From NCBI RefSeq assembly GCF_027595985.1, contig NC_073306.1, positions 82,695,599-82,759,598 of the forward strand: a stretch of DNA of 64,000 nucleotides. Reading direction: 5' to 3'. The notes below the pieces were generated by a model. The model saw only the letters and a list, made by a program, of their open reading frames with translations, was not told the DNA's origin and ran no database searches. Positions 14,011 to 52,743 of this stretch are shown here, piece after piece. Position 1 is the stretch's first letter. Each line of letters starts with the position of its first letter. Source of the DNA: Sorex araneus (lineage: Eukaryota > Chordata > Mammalia > Eulipotyphla > Soricidae). Made by a program: the position numbers and the translations under genes.

Positions 14011-17000
14011 TTTGCTTTTTGGGTCACATCTGGCGATGCACAGGGGTTACTCCTGGCTCTGCACTCAGGAATTACTCCTGGCGGTGCTCGGGGGACCATA
14101 TGGGGTGCTGGAAATTGAACCCGGGTCAGCTGCATGCAAGGCAAATGCCCTACCCACTGTGCTATTGCTCCAGTCCCAATGTGCTTTTATTTTTATTAAG
14201 AGATCTTTTTAAATAGACATTTTGAGTTTACCAAAACACTAAACAGAAACACAGGACTTCCCATCTGTCCACTCCCCCCTCCCCCCCGGTTTTCCCTCAT
14301 GTTAACAGGACACATGGGTGTCATAACTAAGGATTCAATGCAGATACCTGATTACTAATTAAAACCCAGTTTAAGTTAGCGTTCATTCCTGTTGTTGGAC
14401 TTTTCCCCAAGGCTGGGACTCATTGTTGGAATTTCTGGAGTCTCTCCTCTTCTCTAAAGTCCTTCCTGTCCCTCGTGACCCTCAGGTCTCTACCAGCCTG
14501 AACCAGGGCCCTGGGCCAGTAGGTTCTGCCAAACCAGCCATGACTCCCCTGCTGAAGCAGAACCTCTGACGATACACAAGGACTGGTGGCTTCAGAGCCT
14601 CATGCTGGCTCAGTGGGGCCCAGCCTGAGGCCCCCAAATACGGTCATAGGAACCACCGAGTTGATTCCTGCACTGCAAACTGCCTAAGGGGAACCACGTA
14701 ATTGGCTAACAATTAAAGTCTACAGCTTGGCAGCAATATACGTGACCCCACGGGGCCACTCCAGCGCCGCTGCCACCAGGCAGTAACAAGTTCCCACAGC
14801 CACCTGGGGATCCCTGTCTTTAAGGGACATAGCAAGGGGGACAGACAAGCCAGTAGGTTTGATTGCCAAAATATTTCAATGTGTATAGCTCTAGGGGGTG
14901 GGAAATAACAGATTTCCTGGTGCTGAGGGCTAAGTACTACTAAACTACATTCCCCTTTGTCAAATGGTGAACGCCAGAAAGCAGAACTATCCAAAGCCAT
15001 CCGGCCTGCAGGGCAGATCTAAGCTGGGCTGGCCTGGGGCTGGCCTGCAGGCAACACAGGAACCTAGCAGGGGGCTGGGTCCCTGTAAGGGAAGCCTCAG
15101 TCTGTAGAGCAGACCGAGAACTGGAGATCCCAAAGCAATCACAGTTCCATGGCCTTCACCTGGTCAAGCCACCTGCTGTCACACCCTCCTCACCCGTAAA
15201 GCTGTCCTCTCTACCTCCCTAACCTTCTCTGATGTGCCAACCAGGGACAAAAGGAAGGAAGTGGTGAGGCATAGCAGAGAGAGAGAGAAGGGGGGTATGC
15301 AGGGAGGGGTCTGATCCGGGTACCACCCTGCTCTGCTGCATACCAATTGTGACCTTGGACAAGTGCAGGATCTCAGTGACCATCAGCTTCCTCTTTGTCG
15401 GGAGGAAATAACACCCACAGGGTGAAGTTTCCATGAGGATTGAAAGAGACTGGCTGGCAGGAGTTTAGCATTCAGAGCGCCTGGCACCTTGTAGATGCTC
15501 ATCAGTGCAGCAAATATCACCACCATCTTTAACCTTTGTGCGACTAACACAAAGGTTAGTCACTTTTAACACAACTTCATCAGGAAGCTGGTAATTCACT
15601 TTTCACCTCTGAGCTTCAATTTTCCCAGCTGTATAATGGGTTGGGAGTGGGGGTCAGGGGATTAAGCCAAATGACCTTTTTAACTAAGACCCCAGTCCAG
15701 AGAGAAAAGGTGACTTGGAATGAGGTCAGGCTGGCTGGTGGGCGAGAGGTGGGGGTCTCACCGTGCTCGCCACAGCACCCTCCTGCTGTGTCCCATCCCG
15801 GAACCAGATGATGGTGGCAGCGGGTTTGGCGTTGAAGGCTCGGCACGTGAGGTTGTGCGGGGTGCCTGCCTGCAGCAGGATCACAGGGCCGCCGTCAATC
15901 TTGGTGTCCTCTGGGGGGACTGTGGGGGAGAAGAGAGCAAGGTCAGCCCAGGGTATGGTCAAGAGCCCTCGCCCCTGCCCCTTGGAGGCACAACTCCGCC
16001 CCCCACACACACCACCTTGGTTTCTATGGCCACCTCTGGGCAGAAATGTTCCACCCCATGCTCCAGTCACTGCCCCCGGGGGCTCCTGGCCTCTGGCCCT
16101 CACCCACCCAGCCCTACCAGGAAGTTCCCCCCAGAATGAAGCTAAGAGGCTGCCACTTCCCGCTCCGGCACCCCCAGCTGCTGGGGGCAAGTTCCGGGTA
16201 CCACGTTCAGGGCTCCTCAATCCTGCAACGCCCTCACCCAAGTCTCCTCTGGCATTCGGCGCTGAGTCCTTCCCTCAGAGCCTCAGTGACAGTGCTACCC
16301 CCTGAACACAGCCCCGCCACAGCAGAAACCTGCTGTCACCACAGCCCAGCAGTCCTCAGCCGGTCATTCAGCTGGGCAGCAGCTACCCAGGGTCTGAGCT
16401 ACTTAGGGCTATCCATCCTTCCTCCCTGCCCCACGCTGCTCTCCAGGGGACCCTGGGGTCGGAGCCATAGGACAGTGGGGCAAGCACTTGCCTTGCATGA
16501 GGCTGACCCAGGCTCCATCCCTGGCACCGCATATGATTCCCTCAACCCTGCCAGGAGTATCCCTGAGCACCAGTGGGTGTGGCGCCCAAATAAAAGGGCA
16601 GGGATTGTTTCTCACATGGATTTACATTGTACCCGGGGCAGAGAACACGGCAAAGCAGATTCTTGCAAAATGCTTAAAGAACCAAATCTAACAGAGGTCT
16701 GAAAAGAGGAGACATCAGAAGCTTCTTCTCACTCAGGCCCCAGCGTCCACTCTACCCCAAGGTCGGGGGTCAGGGGTGTCAGGGGCTAGAGTACATGCTT
16801 GGCGTGTGTCAGACCTAGGTACCATGCCTGCTAAGCATGCTGCCCTATGTCCCAGCCTGACCACACAGAAGGATTTGGATGGCGATCTTCCTAGTCTATC
16901 CAGTGTGCATCACACCACAAGTGAAGACGGTTGTATTTGCTGTGAGCAAACGGAGCGGGGGGGCTTCCCAGGGACCCCTGAGAGTTGGCCCAGGGCCCAA

Positions 17001-20208: not shown

Positions 20209-20274
<66 letters not shown>

Positions 20275-22237
20275 TGGCCTAGGGCGGGGGAGGAGCGTCA
20301 TTACTGAGCACGGTGAGCTTGGCCCTCCGGGAGCGCAGGGCGGCCTCCGTGGCCTGGCACTCGTAGGAGGCGTCGTCGGAGAGTTCGGCGTCCGTGATCT
20401 CCAGGTTGTACTGCCCGGCGTCCGCGGAACCCACCACCCGGTACCTCGGCCAGGCTGCAGAGGGAGAAAGCAGACACACCTTGATCTGGGAGCCTGTCCC
20501 CCTCTCCCCCAAGCAGGACACGGGTCCTCCCTGTTTCCCCACCCCCCACCCCCCATGGCCCTCAGCCTCCTCCCAGGTCCTGGCACCCCGGGGCAGTTGC
20601 ATGGGCAGCCGCTGCCTTGACACAAGCCCCCAAGAGTGAGGTGGGAGCCCTCAGCGGGAGGGAGGGGCAGACAGGGAAGGCGGGGCATGGAGATGGAAGC
20701 TTAAAGCTGTTTGCAGACAAATGTCTCTAATAATAATAGGGGGGAAGGGAGGGAGGCAGTCTGCAGGGAGGAGAGGAGAGGGGGCGGCGAGAGCAGAGGG
20801 TGCTAGAAAATTCTGCACAGAAAGCTCAGCGGCCTCTGCCAGGGGACTCAAGGCAGGCCTCAGTGGGCCTCATCAGCAGGGCAGGCCAGTAACCCGTGGG
20901 GGCGAGGGGCTCTGGCTCCATGAGTCTGAAGAGCCAGTGGCCTGCATCACTGCCCTCTTCATCGACCTCCCTCCTGCTCTCTCCCCCTCCCCCTCTCTAC
21001 CTCTCTCTATTTTTCCTTCTTCCTCTTTCTCTTTCCCTCTCTCCCTTTCTTCCCTGCTCCTTGCTCTTTCACTCGCTCTCCCCCTACCTGGCTTACTCTC
21101 TTACTTCCCCCTTCCACCCCTCCACTCCCTCCCATTATCTCCCTCTGTCCAGGGGATATCGATCCTTCTTACTCCATATCTATTGATCTCTCTCTCTCTC
21201 TCTCTCCCTCTCTCTCTCTCTCTCCAGTTTCTTTCTCTTTCTACACAAATTTCCTGTCCCTGAACTGAGACAGGGAACCCACAGCCAATAATCCAACCTC
21301 TGGACAACAATAAGAATAAAAATACACACTCCCTCATAACCTTCTGTATGTTTATCATTAGATTGCAATGCAGAAAAAGCATTTTCACAAAGCAACTTCC
21401 ATCATTTGGTTCCAGGGCCACTGAAGCCACCAAGAGGCGGACTGGCCACGACAATTGTGCCCTGTGTCCACAGGAGCCAACCGAGATGCAGAGAGGGGGG
21501 AAGTGGGTACCCTAAGGGCGCCCAGCTGGCAGGAGGCCATGGCAGGACTTGACGCGGGTTCAACTCTGCCCCGAGGCCTTTCTAAATGTCTTTTCACTTT
21601 CTTTGGAATCCAGATTAGCGTTCGCTGTCATGGCTGGCCCTGTCTTACTTGTTTACAGCTTCAGTATGCTTGCCTCAGTTCCAGAGTGCCCCGTGAAGAC
21701 TCCTGGAAAGGCTCCTTGGCTCAGGCCTCCCTGAAGCCCACCCACTGCGAGGAGGGGTGCAGGGTCCCAGGGCCAGGCAGAGGGAGCTGGAGTACACAGG
21801 CAGGAGGTGGGGCCTGAGCAAGATGGTGAGTGAGGAGGGAAGGGGAAGCTGGGGGCAGGGGACACAGAAACGAGGCCCTGTGCAGCCTGAGCTGGCCCAA
21901 AGCCCCACTCACCTTGCTTTTTGGGTCACACCCGGAAATGCACAAGGGTTGCTCCTGGCACCTGCACTCAGGAATTTCTCCTGGCGGTGCTCAGGGGACC
22001 ATATAGGATGTTGGGAATCAAACTCGCGTCAGCCGCGTGCAAGGCAAACGCCCTCCCCACTGTGCTATGGCTCTAGCCCCCACTCACCTTTGAGGCCCTG
22101 GCCCATGCCCAGTGCCAGCCCATCCTTGGTCCACTGCACAATCCCCGAGTAGTTGAGCAGCACACAGGGGAGCACGGCCCGCTGCCCCGCCACCACGGTC
22201 TGGTCGGCTGGCTCCTGGCTGAAGCGGGTCTGGGTGC
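5387..22237 (-). CDS. KIRREL1: KIRREL1 (NEPH1), coding exons 2-15; exon 1 outside window
   Basis: Single-pass adhesion protein of the Ig superfamily. In the family it binds nephrin and other Neph proteins at the podocyte slit diaphragm and signals through tail tyrosines and a PDZ ligand. Exons (5' to 3'): 22088-22237, 20305-20454, 15762-15919, 13289-13439, 12113-12218, 11862-12010, 11586-11713, 10813-10939, 10617-10717, 8793-8991, 6835-6942, 6539-6678, 6050-6127, 5387-5863. All introns are GT-AG and phases join without a frameshift or internal stop. The total is 2222 bases, giving residues 19-757 plus a split Gly18. Five Ig domains have Cys pairs 42/100, 143/200, 244/287, 329/371 and 413/472. 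An RGD lies at 405-407, a membrane helix at about 497-520 and C-terminal Thr-His-Val at 755-757. Paralogues KIRREL2/3 are excluded by near residue-for-residue agreement with remembered human KIRREL1. The signal-peptide exon (about 52 coding bases) was not found and should lie upstream of this window. Confidence 0.97.
5864..6049 (-). other. KIRREL1: KIRREL1 intron 14 (186 bp)
   Basis: Donor GT at 6048-6049 after AAG, acceptor AG at 5864-5865. Short and C-rich, with no repeat seen. Confidence 0.95.
6050..6127 (-). CDS. KIRREL1: KIRREL1 exon 14
   Basis: Seventy-eight bases encode 26 residues (574-599) of the cytoplasmic tail, from SFKDD to EYEMK, phase 0 at both ends. The acceptor is CTGCAG at 6128-6133 and the donor GTGGGG starts at 6049. 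Because length and phases are multiples of three, skipping would keep frame. Confidence 0.97.
6128..6538 (-). other. KIRREL1: KIRREL1 intron 13 (411 bp)
   Basis: Unique GC-rich intron; no SINE or other repeat recognised. Donor GTGAGT starts at 6538, acceptor AG at 6128-6129. Confidence 0.95.
6539..6678 (-). CDS. KIRREL1: KIRREL1 exon 13 (juxtamembrane tail)
   Basis: Completes Ser527 and encodes residues 528-573, RKDVTLRK to KAIYS. Enters in phase 1 and leaves in phase 0. Acceptor CCAG at 6679-6682, donor GTGAGT from 6538. Confidence 0.97.
6679..6834 (-). other. KIRREL1: KIRREL1 intron 12 (156 bp)
   Basis: Short GC-rich intron without repeats. Donor GTGAGTATG starts at 6834. Confidence 0.95.
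6835..6942 (-). CDS. KIRREL1: KIRREL1 exon 12 (transmembrane exon)
   Basis: Completes Glu491 and encodes residues 492-526 plus the first base of Ser527. Residues 497-520 form an uninterrupted hydrophobic helix with a Gly/Ala-rich start and Phe-rich end. It is followed by the stop-transfer run YRRRK (521-525), which fixes the topology as extracellular N-terminus. The acceptor (AG at 6943-6944) is preceded by a pure T22 run in transcript sense. Confidence 0.97.
6951..6972 (+). repeat. A22 homopolymer = T22 polypyrimidine tract of exon 12 acceptor
   Basis: Twenty-two uninterrupted A on the plus strand. In KIRREL1 sense it is T22 ending 8 bases before the exon 12 boundary, so it must act as the polypyrimidine tract of this 3' splice site. 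Confidence 0.95.
7198..7291 (-). repeat. 5'-truncated LINE-1 3' end (94 bp)
   Basis: Shares with 24819-25422 the poly-T start, then 'ttattgaatcacc', a 'gttacaaa'-like block and the 'cacccatc' end. A perfect 15 bp target duplication 'ctcctctgatttctt' flanks it at 7183-7197 and 7292-7306, so this is a very short reverse-oriented insertion. Confidence 0.8.
7316..7846 (-). repeat. SINE split by an inserted 0.33 kb segment
   Basis: The 7316-7395 part carries 'cacacccagtggtgctta', 'ttactcctggct' and 'cactcagg'. The 7731-7846 part resumes with 'ggaccatatgggatgctggg', 'attgaacctgg', 'aggcaaacaccctcccc' and 'ctgtgctctggct'. Together they form one antisense SINE interrupted near its 'actcaggaatca' motif by the segment at 7396-7730. 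Confidence 0.8.
7396..7730. repeat. Duplicated segment, copy 1 (derived, inserted in a SINE)
   Basis: Matches 10972-11300 along its full length with about 16 substitutions, a 7-base insertion and a one-base deletion by my hand alignment (about 95% identity), in the same orientation. It lies inside a SINE, so this copy is the younger one. No target duplication was seen. The left junction shares 'caggaggcctgg' with the source. Confidence 0.9.
8119..8294 (+). repeat. Full-length shrew SINE with 17 bp target duplication
   Basis: Complete element: head 'ggggctggagcaatagcaca', B-box-like 'ggttcgatcc', body 'cagcatcccatatgg', end 'gggtgtgacccaaaaa' and A-tail. Flanked by 'aagacggaacagattcc' at 8102-8118 and 8295-8311. 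Antisense to KIRREL1. Confidence 0.95.
8793..8991 (-). CDS. KIRREL1: KIRREL1 exon 11 (second half of Ig5)
   Basis: Encodes residues 425-490 and the first base of Glu491. It holds the YNC cysteine (472) that pairs with 413 and a sequon at Asn471. It ends in the IIQLEER strand just before the membrane exon. Acceptor CCAG at 8992-8995, donor GTGTGT from 8792; phase 0 in, 1 out. Confidence 0.97.
9267..9431 (-). repeat. Shrew SINE, near full length
   Basis: Antisense copy: 'ttggggtcacatccggcaat', 'ggggttactcct', 'actcaggaattactcctgg', 'gtcagccgcatgc', ending 'ctctggcccc'. Confidence 0.9.
9660..9815 (-). repeat. Shrew SINE, diverged
   Basis: Antisense: 'gggccacacctgctgatgtt', 'ctcctggctctgcgctcagg', 'ggggctcaggggaccat', 'gtgcaaggcaagcgccctac'. 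Older than the neighbour at 9267. Confidence 0.8.
10186..10265. other. AT-rich unique block in intron 10 (possible conserved element)
   Basis: A stretch with TCATTAAATG, GGTTAATGGTCATGG and GGAATTAATGG words stands out from GC-rich surroundings and matches no repeat I know. It has homeodomain-type TAAT cores. Function is only a guess. Confidence 0.2.
10400..10520 (-). repeat. MIR-type relic
   Basis: Contains 'caggaaactgaggctcaaga' followed by a 'gagcagggaagg' region, as in the antisense MIR core with its 'aggaaactgaggctcagaga' motif. Confidence 0.5.
10617..10717 (-). CDS. KIRREL1: KIRREL1 exon 10 (first half of Ig5, RGD)
   Basis: Completes Gly391 and encodes residues 392-424. It contains Cys413 and an Arg-Gly-Asp at 405-407, the annotated potential attachment motif of the family. 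Acceptor CCCAG at 10718-10722, donor GTGAGT from 10616. Confidence 0.97.
10718..10812 (-). other. KIRREL1: KIRREL1 intron 9 (95 bp)
   Basis: Shortest intron of the gene; donor GTGAGTGACC starts at 10812. Confidence 0.95.
10813..10939 (-). CDS. KIRREL1: KIRREL1 exon 9 (second half of Ig4)
   Basis: Encodes residues 349-390 and the first base of Gly391. It has the classic DAGTYTC motif with Cys371. Acceptor CCCAG at 10940-10944. Confidence 0.97.
10940..11585 (-). other. KIRREL1: KIRREL1 intron 8 (646 bp), source of the duplicated segment
   Basis: Donor GTAGAC starts at 11585. More than half of the intron (10972-11300) is the segment that recurs in intron 11. It ends only 32 bases before the exon 9 acceptor. 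Confidence 0.95.
10972..11300. repeat. Duplicated segment, copy 2 (apparent source)
   Basis: Uninterrupted unique sequence here, with the near-identical copy at 7396-7730. It is not flanked by SINE halves, so it is inferred to be the original location. Confidence 0.9.
11586..11713 (-). CDS. KIRREL1: KIRREL1 exon 8 (first half of Ig4)
   Basis: Completes Phe306 and encodes residues 307-348. It holds Cys329 and the [12 protein letters not shown] strands of a C2-type Ig domain. Acceptor CTCAG at 11714-11718; leaves in phase 0 after Met348. Confidence 0.97.
11862..12010 (-). CDS. KIRREL1: KIRREL1 exon 7 (second half of Ig3)
   Basis: Completes Arg256, encodes 257-305 and the first base of Phe306. 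Cys287 pairs with 244; there is a sequon at Asn297. Val263 and Glu292 differ from the Leu and Lys I recall in human. Introns on either side are only 148 bp (11714-11861) and 102 bp (12011-12112). Confidence 0.97.
12113..12218 (-). CDS. KIRREL1: KIRREL1 exon 6 (first half of Ig3)
   Basis: Completes His221 and encodes 222-255 and two bases of Arg256. It contains Cys244 in the context VVFTCQA. Acceptor TGCAG at 12219-12223; donor GTGCAA from 12112. Confidence 0.97.
12219..13288 (-). other. KIRREL1: KIRREL1 intron 5 (1070 bp)
   Basis: Contains a LINE-like AT-rich block (12266-12520), otherwise unique sequence. A short C/CA-rich run lies at about 12917-12940. Confidence 0.95.
12266..12520 (-). 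repeat. Probable LINE 3' end (diverged)
   Basis: Begins with T/A-rich sequence, then 'ggttgctcacagtaatttatta', 'caatattctaacaccaa' and 'ccaccaccattctgcc'. This wording resembles the antisense LINE-1 3' ends elsewhere in the window. No target duplication found. Confidence 0.5.
13289..13439 (-). CDS. KIRREL1: KIRREL1 exon 5 (second half of Ig2)
   Basis: Encodes 171-220 and the first base of His221. Cys200 (VFTCRS) pairs with Cys143. Acceptor CCCCAG at 13440-13445, donor GTGAGG from 13288. Confidence 0.97.
13785..13918 (-). repeat. Shrew SINE, old
   Basis: Antisense: 'gggtcgatgcccagtggtgc', 'tcagggatcactcttggca', 'gggaaccatgtggggtgcag', then a decayed head. Confidence 0.75.
13975..14178 (-). 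repeat. Shrew SINE with expanded (TTTA)n tail
   Basis: Near-intact antisense SINE from 14012, whose A-tail has become a TTTA tetramer run (about 13967-14013). Target duplication 'atgtgcttttattt' starts at 13960 and again at 14179. Confidence 0.9.
15310..15535 (+). repeat. MIR element
   Basis: Recognisable MIR order: 'gtgaccttggacaagt', a 'ctcagtgacc...cttcctc' block, 'gaggattgaaagaga' and 'gcgcctggcaccttgtagatg'. Confidence 0.7.
15762..15919 (-). CDS. KIRREL1: KIRREL1 exon 4 (first half of Ig2)
   Basis: Completes Ile118 and encodes 119-170. It holds Cys143 (NLTCRA), Trp156 and a sequon at Asn140. Acceptor CACAG at 15920-15924, donor GTGAGA from 15761. Confidence 0.97.
16455..16594 (+). repeat. 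Shrew SINE, diverged
   Basis: Forward: 'ggagccataggacagtgggg', 'cttgccttgcatgaggctga', 'tccctggcaccgcatatg', 'ctgccaggagtatccctgag'. Confidence 0.75.
17596..17626. repeat. (GT)n microsatellite
   Basis: About 15 GT units in intron 3. Confidence 0.95.
18697..18878 (-). repeat. Full-length shrew SINE
   Basis: Antisense, with poly-T, 'gctttttgggtcacacccag', 'gatcgaacccgggtcggcc' and 'gctatcgctccggcccc'. Target duplication 'aggctgggactc' (18685-18696) and 'aggctgggagtc' (18879-18890), one mismatch. Confidence 0.95.
19062..19141. repeat. Two-copy 40 bp tandem repeat
   Basis: Units 19062-19101 and 19102-19141 share the order 'gtc(c/t)gtcctgccc(c/t)tagtc' then 'ccgtctgtcctgac', with about 4 differences. 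Confidence 0.85.
20211..20272. repeat. (GT)31 microsatellite next to exon 3 donor
   Basis: Sixty-two bases of perfect GT; in KIRREL1 sense a (CA)31 occupying intron positions +33 to +94 after the exon 3 donor. Confidence 0.97.
20305..20454 (-). CDS. KIRREL1: KIRREL1 exon 3 (second half of Ig1)
   Basis: Completes Ala68, encodes 69-117 and the first base of Ile118. It holds the SYEC motif with Cys100. Acceptor TGCAG at 20455-20459. The donor is GTAATG, weaker than the GTGAGT sites of most other exons of this gene. Confidence 0.97.
20963..21243. repeat. Polypyrimidine (CT-rich) tract
   Basis: About 280 bases almost wholly C and T on the plus strand, with a purer (CT)n at about 21186-21226. In the transcript it is purine-rich (GA). 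Confidence 0.9.
21911..21912 (-). promoter_or_regulatory. Duplicate (cryptic) splice donor of exon 2
   Basis: Minus-strand CAAG|GTGAGTG, an exact 10-base copy of the true donor (AAG|GTGAGTG, GT at 22086-22087) made by the SINE target duplication. Its use would add 175 bases to exon 2 and reach TAG at 22065-22067 after seven extra codons. Confidence 0.8.
21916..22080 (-). repeat. Shrew SINE inserted at the exon 2 splice donor
   Basis: Antisense on the plus strand, hence sense in the KIRREL1 transcript: 'gctttttgggtcacacccgg', 'gaccatataggatg', 'gccgcgtgcaaggcaaacgc', 'ctctagcccc'. The target duplication 'cactcacctt' lies at 21906-21915 and 22081-22090. The right copy is the exon 2 donor itself. 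Confidence 0.93.
22088..22237 (-). CDS. KIRREL1: KIRREL1 exon 2 (first half of Ig1)
   Basis: Starts inside the Gly18 codon (last two bases) and encodes 19-67 plus one base of Ala68. It begins at the mature N-terminus (TQTRFSQEP) and carries Cys42, Trp53 and a sequon at Asn46. Acceptor GGCAG at 22238-22242; donor GTGAGTG from 22087. Confidence 0.97.
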
Positions 22238-26613: not shown

Positions 26614-26828
26614 TTTTTTTTTTTATTTTTTTTTTTATTTTTATTTTTATTTTTTTTTTTTTTTGCTTTTTGGGTCACACCTGGCGATGCACAAGGGTCA
26701 CTCCTGGCTCTGCACTCAGGAATTACCCCTGGCGGTGCTCAGGGGACCATATGGGATGCTGGGAATCGAACCCGGGTCGGCCGCGTGCAAGGCAAACGTC
26801 CTACCCGCTGTGCTATCACTCCAGCCCC
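26614..26828 (-). repeat. Full-length shrew SINE with long T-rich tail
   Basis: Intact antisense body ending 'gctatcactccagcccc', with a 65-base T-rich tail. Target duplication 'ttgcctgcattttta' at 26599-26613 and 26829-26843, perfect. Confidence 0.95.

Positions 26829-37357: not shown

Positions 37358-37360
<3 letters not shown>

Positions 37361-37443
<83 letters not shown>
37361..37443. repeat. (GA)n microsatellite, about 83 bp
   Basis: Uninterrupted AG dinucleotides directly after the SINE at 37240-37345. Confidence 0.97.
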
Positions 37444-47528: not shown

Positions 47529-47637
<109 letters not shown>

Positions 47638-52558: not shown

Positions 52559-52585
<27 letters not shown>

Positions 52586-52743
52586 GGGTCACACCCGGCA
52601 ATGCACAGGGGTCATTCCTGGCTCATGCACTCAGGAATTACTCCTGGCGGTGCTCAGGGGACCATATGGGATGCTGGAATTCGAACCCGGGTTGGCCGCA
52701 TGCAAGGCAAACACCCTACCCGCTGTGCTATCACTCCAGCCCC
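52559..52743 (-). repeat. Full-length shrew SINE
   Basis: Antisense, intact. Perfect target duplication 'tagcactataactctt' at 52543-52558 and 52744-52759. Confidence 0.95.

What the first reader, a model, noticed from the sequence alone, without database searches (positions are those of the whole stretch)
21906..22090. A SINE insertion duplicated the KIRREL1 exon 2 splice donor
Seen: the 10 bases 'cactcacctt' occur at 21906-21915 and at 22081-22090, on either side of an intact SINE. The right copy is the exon 2 donor (minus strand AAG|GTGAGTG). The left copy is a second donor of essentially equal quality 175 bases downstream. Inference: the target site of retrotransposition was the splice site itself, so the gene now has two competing donors with the SINE between them, in transcript sense. 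Use of the distal donor adds 175 bases and hits a TAG (22065-22067) after seven codons, predicting a truncated or NMD-sensitive isoform. The SINE tail is almost absent, so the duplicate donor sits directly at the SINE 3' end.
Basis: partly seen in the sequence, partly recalled or inferred. Interest (0 to 1): 0.75.

Follow-up and report, generated by a model that had tools for sequence, protein, structure and literature searches.

The report
Shrew SINE duplicated KIRREL1 splice donor
A short mobile element landed exactly on the end of an exon of the cell-adhesion gene KIRREL1 in what appears to be a shrew and left two identical splice signals 175 bases apart; the copy next to the exon is probably still the one used, and the spare copy is predicted to be tucked into an RNA hairpin.

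Summary
On the minus strand, KIRREL1 exon 2 (22237-22088; 49 of 49 residues identical to PDB 4ofd) ends at AAG|GTGAGTG. A full-length 165-nt soricid SINE in transcript sense (22080-21916) follows, then a second copy of the donor (21915-21906). The repeat is 10-13 bp without mismatch and sits where neighbouring SINEs have their target-site duplications, so it is a retroposition footprint. The A-tail is gone. Distal donor use would add 175 nt and reach TAG after seven codons.
That the donors compete as equals is weaker. Their nine-base motifs are identical, but folding predicts that the distal copy pairs with an intronic anti-donor stretch (21835-21819) while the proximal copy stays open; this holds in 33 of 36 longer folds, not in all. 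The exon 2/3 protein junction shows the proximal donor to be the conserved one. No RNA-seq or outgroup DNA was available.
It is not unique: two genome pattern searches gave 25 further loci with a donor-like word by a SINE; two are at coding-exon ends (NOP58, FMO). The nearest parallel found is the dog merle PMEL insertion, which duplicated an acceptor. Most likely tolerated rather than functional.

The parts
22088..22237 (-). KIRREL1 exon 2 (first Ig domain), ends in phase 1
   Evidence: 49/49 residues identical to PDB 4ofd residues 7-55; exon 3 continues at residue 56
22081..22090 (-). Exon-proximal (original) donor AAG|GTGAGTG, 5' copy of the target-site duplication
   Evidence: sequence; phase gives the conserved K-A junction
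21916..22080 (-). Full-length soricid tRNA-like SINE, transcript sense, about 11% from the window consensus, no A-tail
   Evidence: printed shrew SINE primers
21906..21915 (-). Distal duplicate donor AAG|GTGAGTG, 3' copy of the target-site duplication
22065..22067 (-). In-frame TAG met after seven extra codons if the distal donor is used
21819..21835 (-). Intronic anti-donor stretch CCTCACTCACCATCTTG, predicted to pair with the distal donor
21805..21925 (-). Predicted hairpin containing the distal donor, -47.0 kcal/mol, z -2.57
20306..20455 (-). KIRREL1 exon 3 coding match (AWPRYR...), 50/50 residues
   Evidence: PDB 4ofd residues 56-105

Best explanation
A soricid SINE inserted by target-primed reverse transcription with its first nick at the exon 2 end (minus-strand sense CCTC(A)|AAGGTGAGTG), so that the 10-13 bp target-site duplication carried the whole 5' splice site. 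The exon kept its own copy; the second copy went to the far end of the SINE. The A-tail was later lost down to the two A shared with the duplication (or was never made). Most likely the proximal donor is still the working one, because it is transcribed first, sits on a 150-nt exon and is predicted to be unpaired, whereas the distal copy is predicted to be held in a hairpin; distal use would give a 325-nt exon with a premature stop. Shown: sequence anatomy, gene identity, frame, SINE family, duplication. Predicted: RNA accessibility. Inferred: splice choice, tail loss, relative age, host species.
For: Exact 10-13 bp repeat abutting both SINE ends. 7 of 9 other full-length window copies show target-site duplications of about 13-17 bp (some with one mismatch) at the same two points, four of those seven beginning AAG. 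SINE family supported by printed Soricidae primers that match other window copies with 0-1 mismatch and by 40 further genome matches, one of them only 32 nt (a capped list, 40 scored of 4769 candidates). The locus with its flanks appears once in that list. Exon 2 and exon 3 join at 4ofd residues 55/56 with the proximal donor. Opening cost of the donor 9-mer with 100-nt flanks: proximal 0.86 kcal/mol (1.7th percentile of 600 random GT sites in the window), distal 13.04 (99th). Shuffling only the downstream flank reaches the observed cost in 4 of 200, shuffling only the 17-nt anti-donor stretch in 1 of 100. In 33 of 36 longer folds the distal donor is the harder to open. Nascent folds keep the proximal donor open (0.85-2.10 kcal/mol) until the 3' end passes 21815.
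Against: No outgroup or empty allele could be read. The tail is missing, while 8 of 9 other full-length window copies and 17 of 17 close genome copies that were read (of 29 other loci) have one. The folding asymmetry depends on the stretch folded: with flanks of 40 and 60 nt the two donors are alike (proximal/distal 0.80/0.97 and 0.68/0.86); in 3 of 36 longer folds the order is reversed, in many the gap is about 3 kcal/mol, and the proximal cost itself rises to as much as 8.21; in the minimum-energy fold of 22100-21805 it is the proximal donor that pairs with the anti-donor stretch. The hairpin z-score is modest (-2.57, 3 of 200 shuffles as stable). From recalled in vitro work on duplicated 5' splice sites, the copy nearer the 3' splice site can win.
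Confidence: 0.78

Rival explanations
1. One reading: the donors are equal and compete, so a sizeable share of KIRREL1 transcripts carries the 175-nt extension and is lost to nonsense-mediated decay, tuning KIRREL1 dosage.
For: Identical 9-mers and identical +1 to +10; both tie for second best of 6390 GT sites in the window on a recalled donor matrix; distal extension ends in TAG; with 40- and 60-nt flanks both are equally open.
Against: Predicted burial of the distal donor with flanks of 80 nt and more and in 33 of 36 longer folds; 325-nt exon; proximal copy transcribed first. No expression data.
Confidence: 0.15
2. The second donor copy is a coincidence or an older tandem repeat next to which the SINE landed, not a target-site duplication.
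For: Donor-like words are not rare: 9 matches with up to one mismatch in the window against 6.9 expected. The A-tail is missing.
Against: The exact repeat abuts both ends of a full-length SINE whose ends are fixed by nine other copies; chance 0.0016 even with generous placement.
Confidence: 0.04
3. The duplicate acts as a cassette-exon donor: an acceptor inside the SINE pairs with the distal donor to make a new SINE exon.
For: One weak acceptor-like site in the SINE at 21990 with 11 of 16 pyrimidines.
Against: Weak tract, no splicing data, distal donor predicted buried.
Confidence: 0.03

Closest known systems
Dog merle allele: SINEC_Cf in PMEL (SILV) at intron 10/exon 11
   Same: A carnivore SINE inserted on a splice site with a 15-bp target-site duplication; tail length matters; alleles with short tails splice normally (passages read of PMC7349775, and PMC6091007)
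   Different: Merle concerns an acceptor, is antisense and supplies a cryptic acceptor through its poly(T); here a donor is duplicated, in sense, and the tail is gone
NOP58 exon in the same genome (L043)
   Same: Sense SINE of the same family abutting a real coding-exon donor; donor sequence on both sides
   Different: A-tail kept; distal copy has lost its -1 G (AAT|GTGAGT); no predicted burial
FMO-family exon in the same genome (L054)
   Same: Sense SINE on a coding-exon donor, AAGGTAAGTGGACCC present twice without mismatch
   Different: A-tail kept; distal donor predicted open (0.21 kcal/mol at 100-nt flanks)
Introners (transposons that make introns)
   Same: Target-site duplication shares splice-site letters (PMC9860276 seen in the search listing only; mechanism recalled)
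   Different: There the element becomes a new intron; here it lies inside an old intron next to the donor
MAPT exon 10 donor stem-loop
   Same: A donor embedded in a local stem-loop that limits U1 access (passage of PMC7404189)
   Different: There known from disease variants and regulatory; here only predicted, on a spare copy

Membership tests
Soricid tRNA-like SINE (shrew SINE) | Sequence of the family body from GGGGCTGGAG to CCCAAAAAGC | tested here: met
   Full-length 165-nt match to nine other window copies and further genome matches (capped list); printed shrew primers match other window copies with 0-1 mismatch; this copy itself is not among those primer matches
Soricid tRNA-like SINE (shrew SINE) | tRNA-like head | tested here: inconclusive
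   ARAGORN reads the heads of three other copies (14100, 26751, 52666) as tRNA-Ala; this copy itself is not called
L1-type target-primed retroposition | Target-site duplication abutting both ends | tested here: met
   10-13 bp, no mismatch
L1-type target-primed retroposition | A-rich 3' tail | tested here: not met
   0-2 A here; 8 of 9 other full-length window copies have a tail, and 17 of 17 close genome copies read. SINE identity rests on the body; tail loss by slippage is an inference, and a tailless route is not excluded
L1-type target-primed retroposition | Nick at a T-rich site (TTTT/AA type, recalled) | tested here: inconclusive
   Plus strand reads ACCTTT/GAGG or ACCTT/TGAGG at the junction; four of the seven other window duplications begin AAG
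Splice-site duplication by retroposition (merle kind) | Target-site duplication contains the splice site of a real exon | tested here: met
   Donor of KIRREL1 exon 2 by protein junction
Splice-site duplication by retroposition (merle kind) | Measured change of splicing | not testable with these tools
   No RNA data

The most novel reading that the evidence does not exclude
The SINE turned the duplicated donor into a structural decoy: an intronic anti-donor stretch (21835-21819) that could pair with the single ancestral donor now pairs with the nearer distal copy, so the insertion freed the real donor and raised or stabilised exon 2 splicing. In a script that joined the two flanks, the single donor costs 1.92-1.93 kcal/mol to open with 40- to 80-nt flanks, 3.87 at 100, 5.26 at 120, 12.06 at 160 and 9.99 at 200, against 0.68-0.91 for the proximal donor today with the same flanks. 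Against it: stretches that include the anti-donor region raise today's proximal cost to as much as 8.21, so the comparison is not fully like for like.
Probability: 0.1. Interest if true: 0.65.

Novelty: new member of a known kind. Interest (0 to 1): 0.42.

Why it matters
It is a natural duplicated-donor experiment in a conserved gene: two donors identical from -3 to +10, 175 nt apart, in different RNA contexts. Together with NOP58 and FMO in the same genome it suggests that sense SINEs hit exon ends more than once, perhaps because the AAG often seen at the start of their target-site duplications is also what many exons end with (an idea, not tested for enrichment). It would let one test with RNA-seq alone how position, structure and decay decide between equal donors.

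Tried and rejected
Selection on the distal donor: its lack of mutations was considered as evidence and rejected, because at 8.3% non-CpG divergence an unselected 10-mer stays intact with probability about 0.44 (own arithmetic). L035 first looked like a further coding example; by eye the same stretch reads better as an exon on the other strand, but neither reading found a PDB match, so it is set aside as undecided. General masking of distal duplicates: rejected; of 9 other loci folded and the FMO locus, none has a distal opening cost above 7.2 kcal/mol. Rfam gave two matches far below their gathering scores; one, mir-650 at 21819-21916 (19.1 bits, E 0.72), spans the predicted hairpin and is taken to reflect the hairpin shape only. 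Printed-sequence search for the SINE gave no paper. Literature searches for a donor duplicated by a SINE (one search found none) listed no paper that I recognised as such, but only listings and, for PMC11321964, passages were seen; those passages say only that Alu insertions close to acceptors and donors can disrupt splicing. A first exon query to the PDB in the wrong frame gave nothing. Enrichment of donors as SINE targets stays untested: the scrambled-word control and the CAG|GTRAGT census did not complete; the built-in reversed-pattern control (0) also reverses the SINE and is no test of enrichment.

Full report
Observation. On the minus strand the end of KIRREL1 exon 2 reads GGC CTC AAA G|GTGAGTG, then a SINE, then GC AAG|GTGAGTG. 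The 10-mer occurs twice in the window without mismatch, at exactly these places. The repeat is 13 nt long, but the SINE family itself begins with GGGG, so 10 to 13 bp is the honest range. It is the only exact 10-mer repeat at spacing 175 in the scanned 63600 positions. The exon is KIRREL1: 49 of 49 residues match PDB 4ofd (Kin of IRRE-like protein 1) residues 7-55, and exon 3 matches residues 56-105, 50 of 50. So the proximal donor makes the conserved junction. The extension reads GEWGLEP*.

The element. A search of the window with the 165-nt body gave 29 matches, itself included; ten of them, itself included, were taken as full length or nearly so. Seven of the nine others have target-site duplications of about 13-17 bp at the two points where the donor copies sit here; two (57524, 9431) have none that convinces. 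The family is that of the printed Soricidae primers (Table 1 of PMC8608897, passages read), which match other window copies with 0 or 1 mismatch. This copy differs from the window consensus at 18 of 164 sites, 12 of 144 outside CpG, and from a consensus of 17 close genome copies at 17 positions, one of them an insertion. It is therefore not among the youngest copies; no calibrated date is claimed. The host genome has 2,405,902,106 bases in 65 contigs, and the locus with its flanks appears once in a capped match list; a shrew is inferred from the SINE.

The missing tail. Eight of nine other full-length window copies keep an A-rich tail (read by eye where the script gave 0; in 34764 it follows GCC, in 62977 it is interrupted), and so do 17 of 17 close genome copies read. 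Here CCCAAAAAGC is followed directly by AAGGTGAGTG. Since the duplication starts with AA, slippage of an A-run down to AA would leave no scar; a tailless insertion is also possible. Which of the two is not settled.

Which donor? The two nine-base motifs are identical, so every nine-base score is equal. On a recalled matrix they share 12.32 of a maximum 12.61 and rank just behind the best of 6390 GT sites in the window. RNA folding separates them. With 100-nt flanks, freeing the proximal 9-mer costs 0.86 kcal/mol and the distal 13.04; 600 random GT sites of the window put these at the 1.7th and 99th percentile. The cause is an intronic stretch CCTCACTCACCATCTTG at 21835-21819, which forms the closing stem of a -47.0 kcal/mol hairpin with GCAAGGTGAGTGGGG (z -2.57, 3 of 200 shuffles as stable). 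Shuffling that stretch alone reaches the observed cost in 1 of 100 trials; shuffling the downstream flank, or both flanks, in 4 of 200 each. The openness of the proximal donor is less unusual: 9 of 200 shuffles of its flanks are as open. In the fold of 22237-21750 the stretch makes 14.2 expected pairs with the distal and 0.0 with the proximal donor.

Limits of the folding argument. With flanks of 40 or 60 nt the donors are alike, because the partner stretch is then absent. In longer folds the distal donor is harder to open in 33 of 36 stretches, often by only about 3 kcal/mol, and in 3 of 36 the order is reversed; the proximal cost rises to as much as 8.21 there. In the minimum-energy fold of 22100-21805 the proximal donor takes the anti-donor stretch. 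These are predictions for naked RNA from a single sequence, without covariation.

Is it alone? Two pattern searches in the own genome looked for AAGGTGAGT or AAGGTAAGT within 8 nt of a near-consensus SINE 5' end: 14 and 11 loci. The KIRREL1 copy itself is missed by the pattern (C at its 12th base), so these are lower bounds. The 9-mer is intact on both sides in 6 of 14 and, by eye, in 4 of 11. Two of the 25 are shown to be coding-exon donors by protein match: L043, NOP58, 19 of 20 residues of PDB 7mq8, whose distal copy has decayed to AAT|GTGAGT; and L054, an FMO-family exon (Pfam FMO-like, E 4e-16; PDB 6sem), with a perfect duplicate AAGGTAAGTGGACCC. L035 is undecided: by eye the exon lies on the other strand, and neither strand's peptide matched the PDB. 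For L031, L039 and L040 one frame each gave no Pfam match; the other 19 were not tested against protein libraries. A scrambled-word control was asked for many times and never answered, so no enrichment is claimed.

Comparison. The dog merle allele is the nearest published case found: a SINE with a 15-bp target-site duplication at the PMEL exon 11 acceptor (PMC7349775, passages), with splicing dependent on tail length (PMC6091007, passages). KIRREL1 is the donor counterpart, in sense and without tail. Stem-loop masking of a donor is known from MAPT exon 10 (PMC7404189, passage).

Judgement. The duplication is as good as shown. The decoy reading is bolder and testable. Interest is moderate: a clean natural experiment and a hint of a recurrent class, with known precedent.

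Noticed in passing
L043 (G000:C12:235165097-235165131): A SINE of the same family sits on a NOP58 coding-exon donor; the distal donor copy has lost its -1 G.
   Followed up: partly
L054 (G000:C12:161204786-161204821): A SINE of the same family sits on an FMO-family coding-exon donor and duplicates AAGGTAAGTGGACCC perfectly, with an A-tail kept.
   Followed up: partly
window 14100-14172, 26751-26823, 52666-52738: ARAGORN calls three SINE heads tRNA-Ala (TGC), so the family's head still passes as a tRNA gene.
   Followed up: no
window 52579-52743: SINE whose 17-bp target-site duplication (AAGAGTTATAGTGCTAG) runs into what looks like another, older SINE.
   Followed up: no
window 20211-20272, 37360-37443, 47531-47637: Long dinucleotide or short-unit runs (GT, GA, TG followed by GAGACA), seen with Tandem Repeats Finder; the first lies about 30 bases beyond the KIRREL1 exon 3 coding match.
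   Followed up: no
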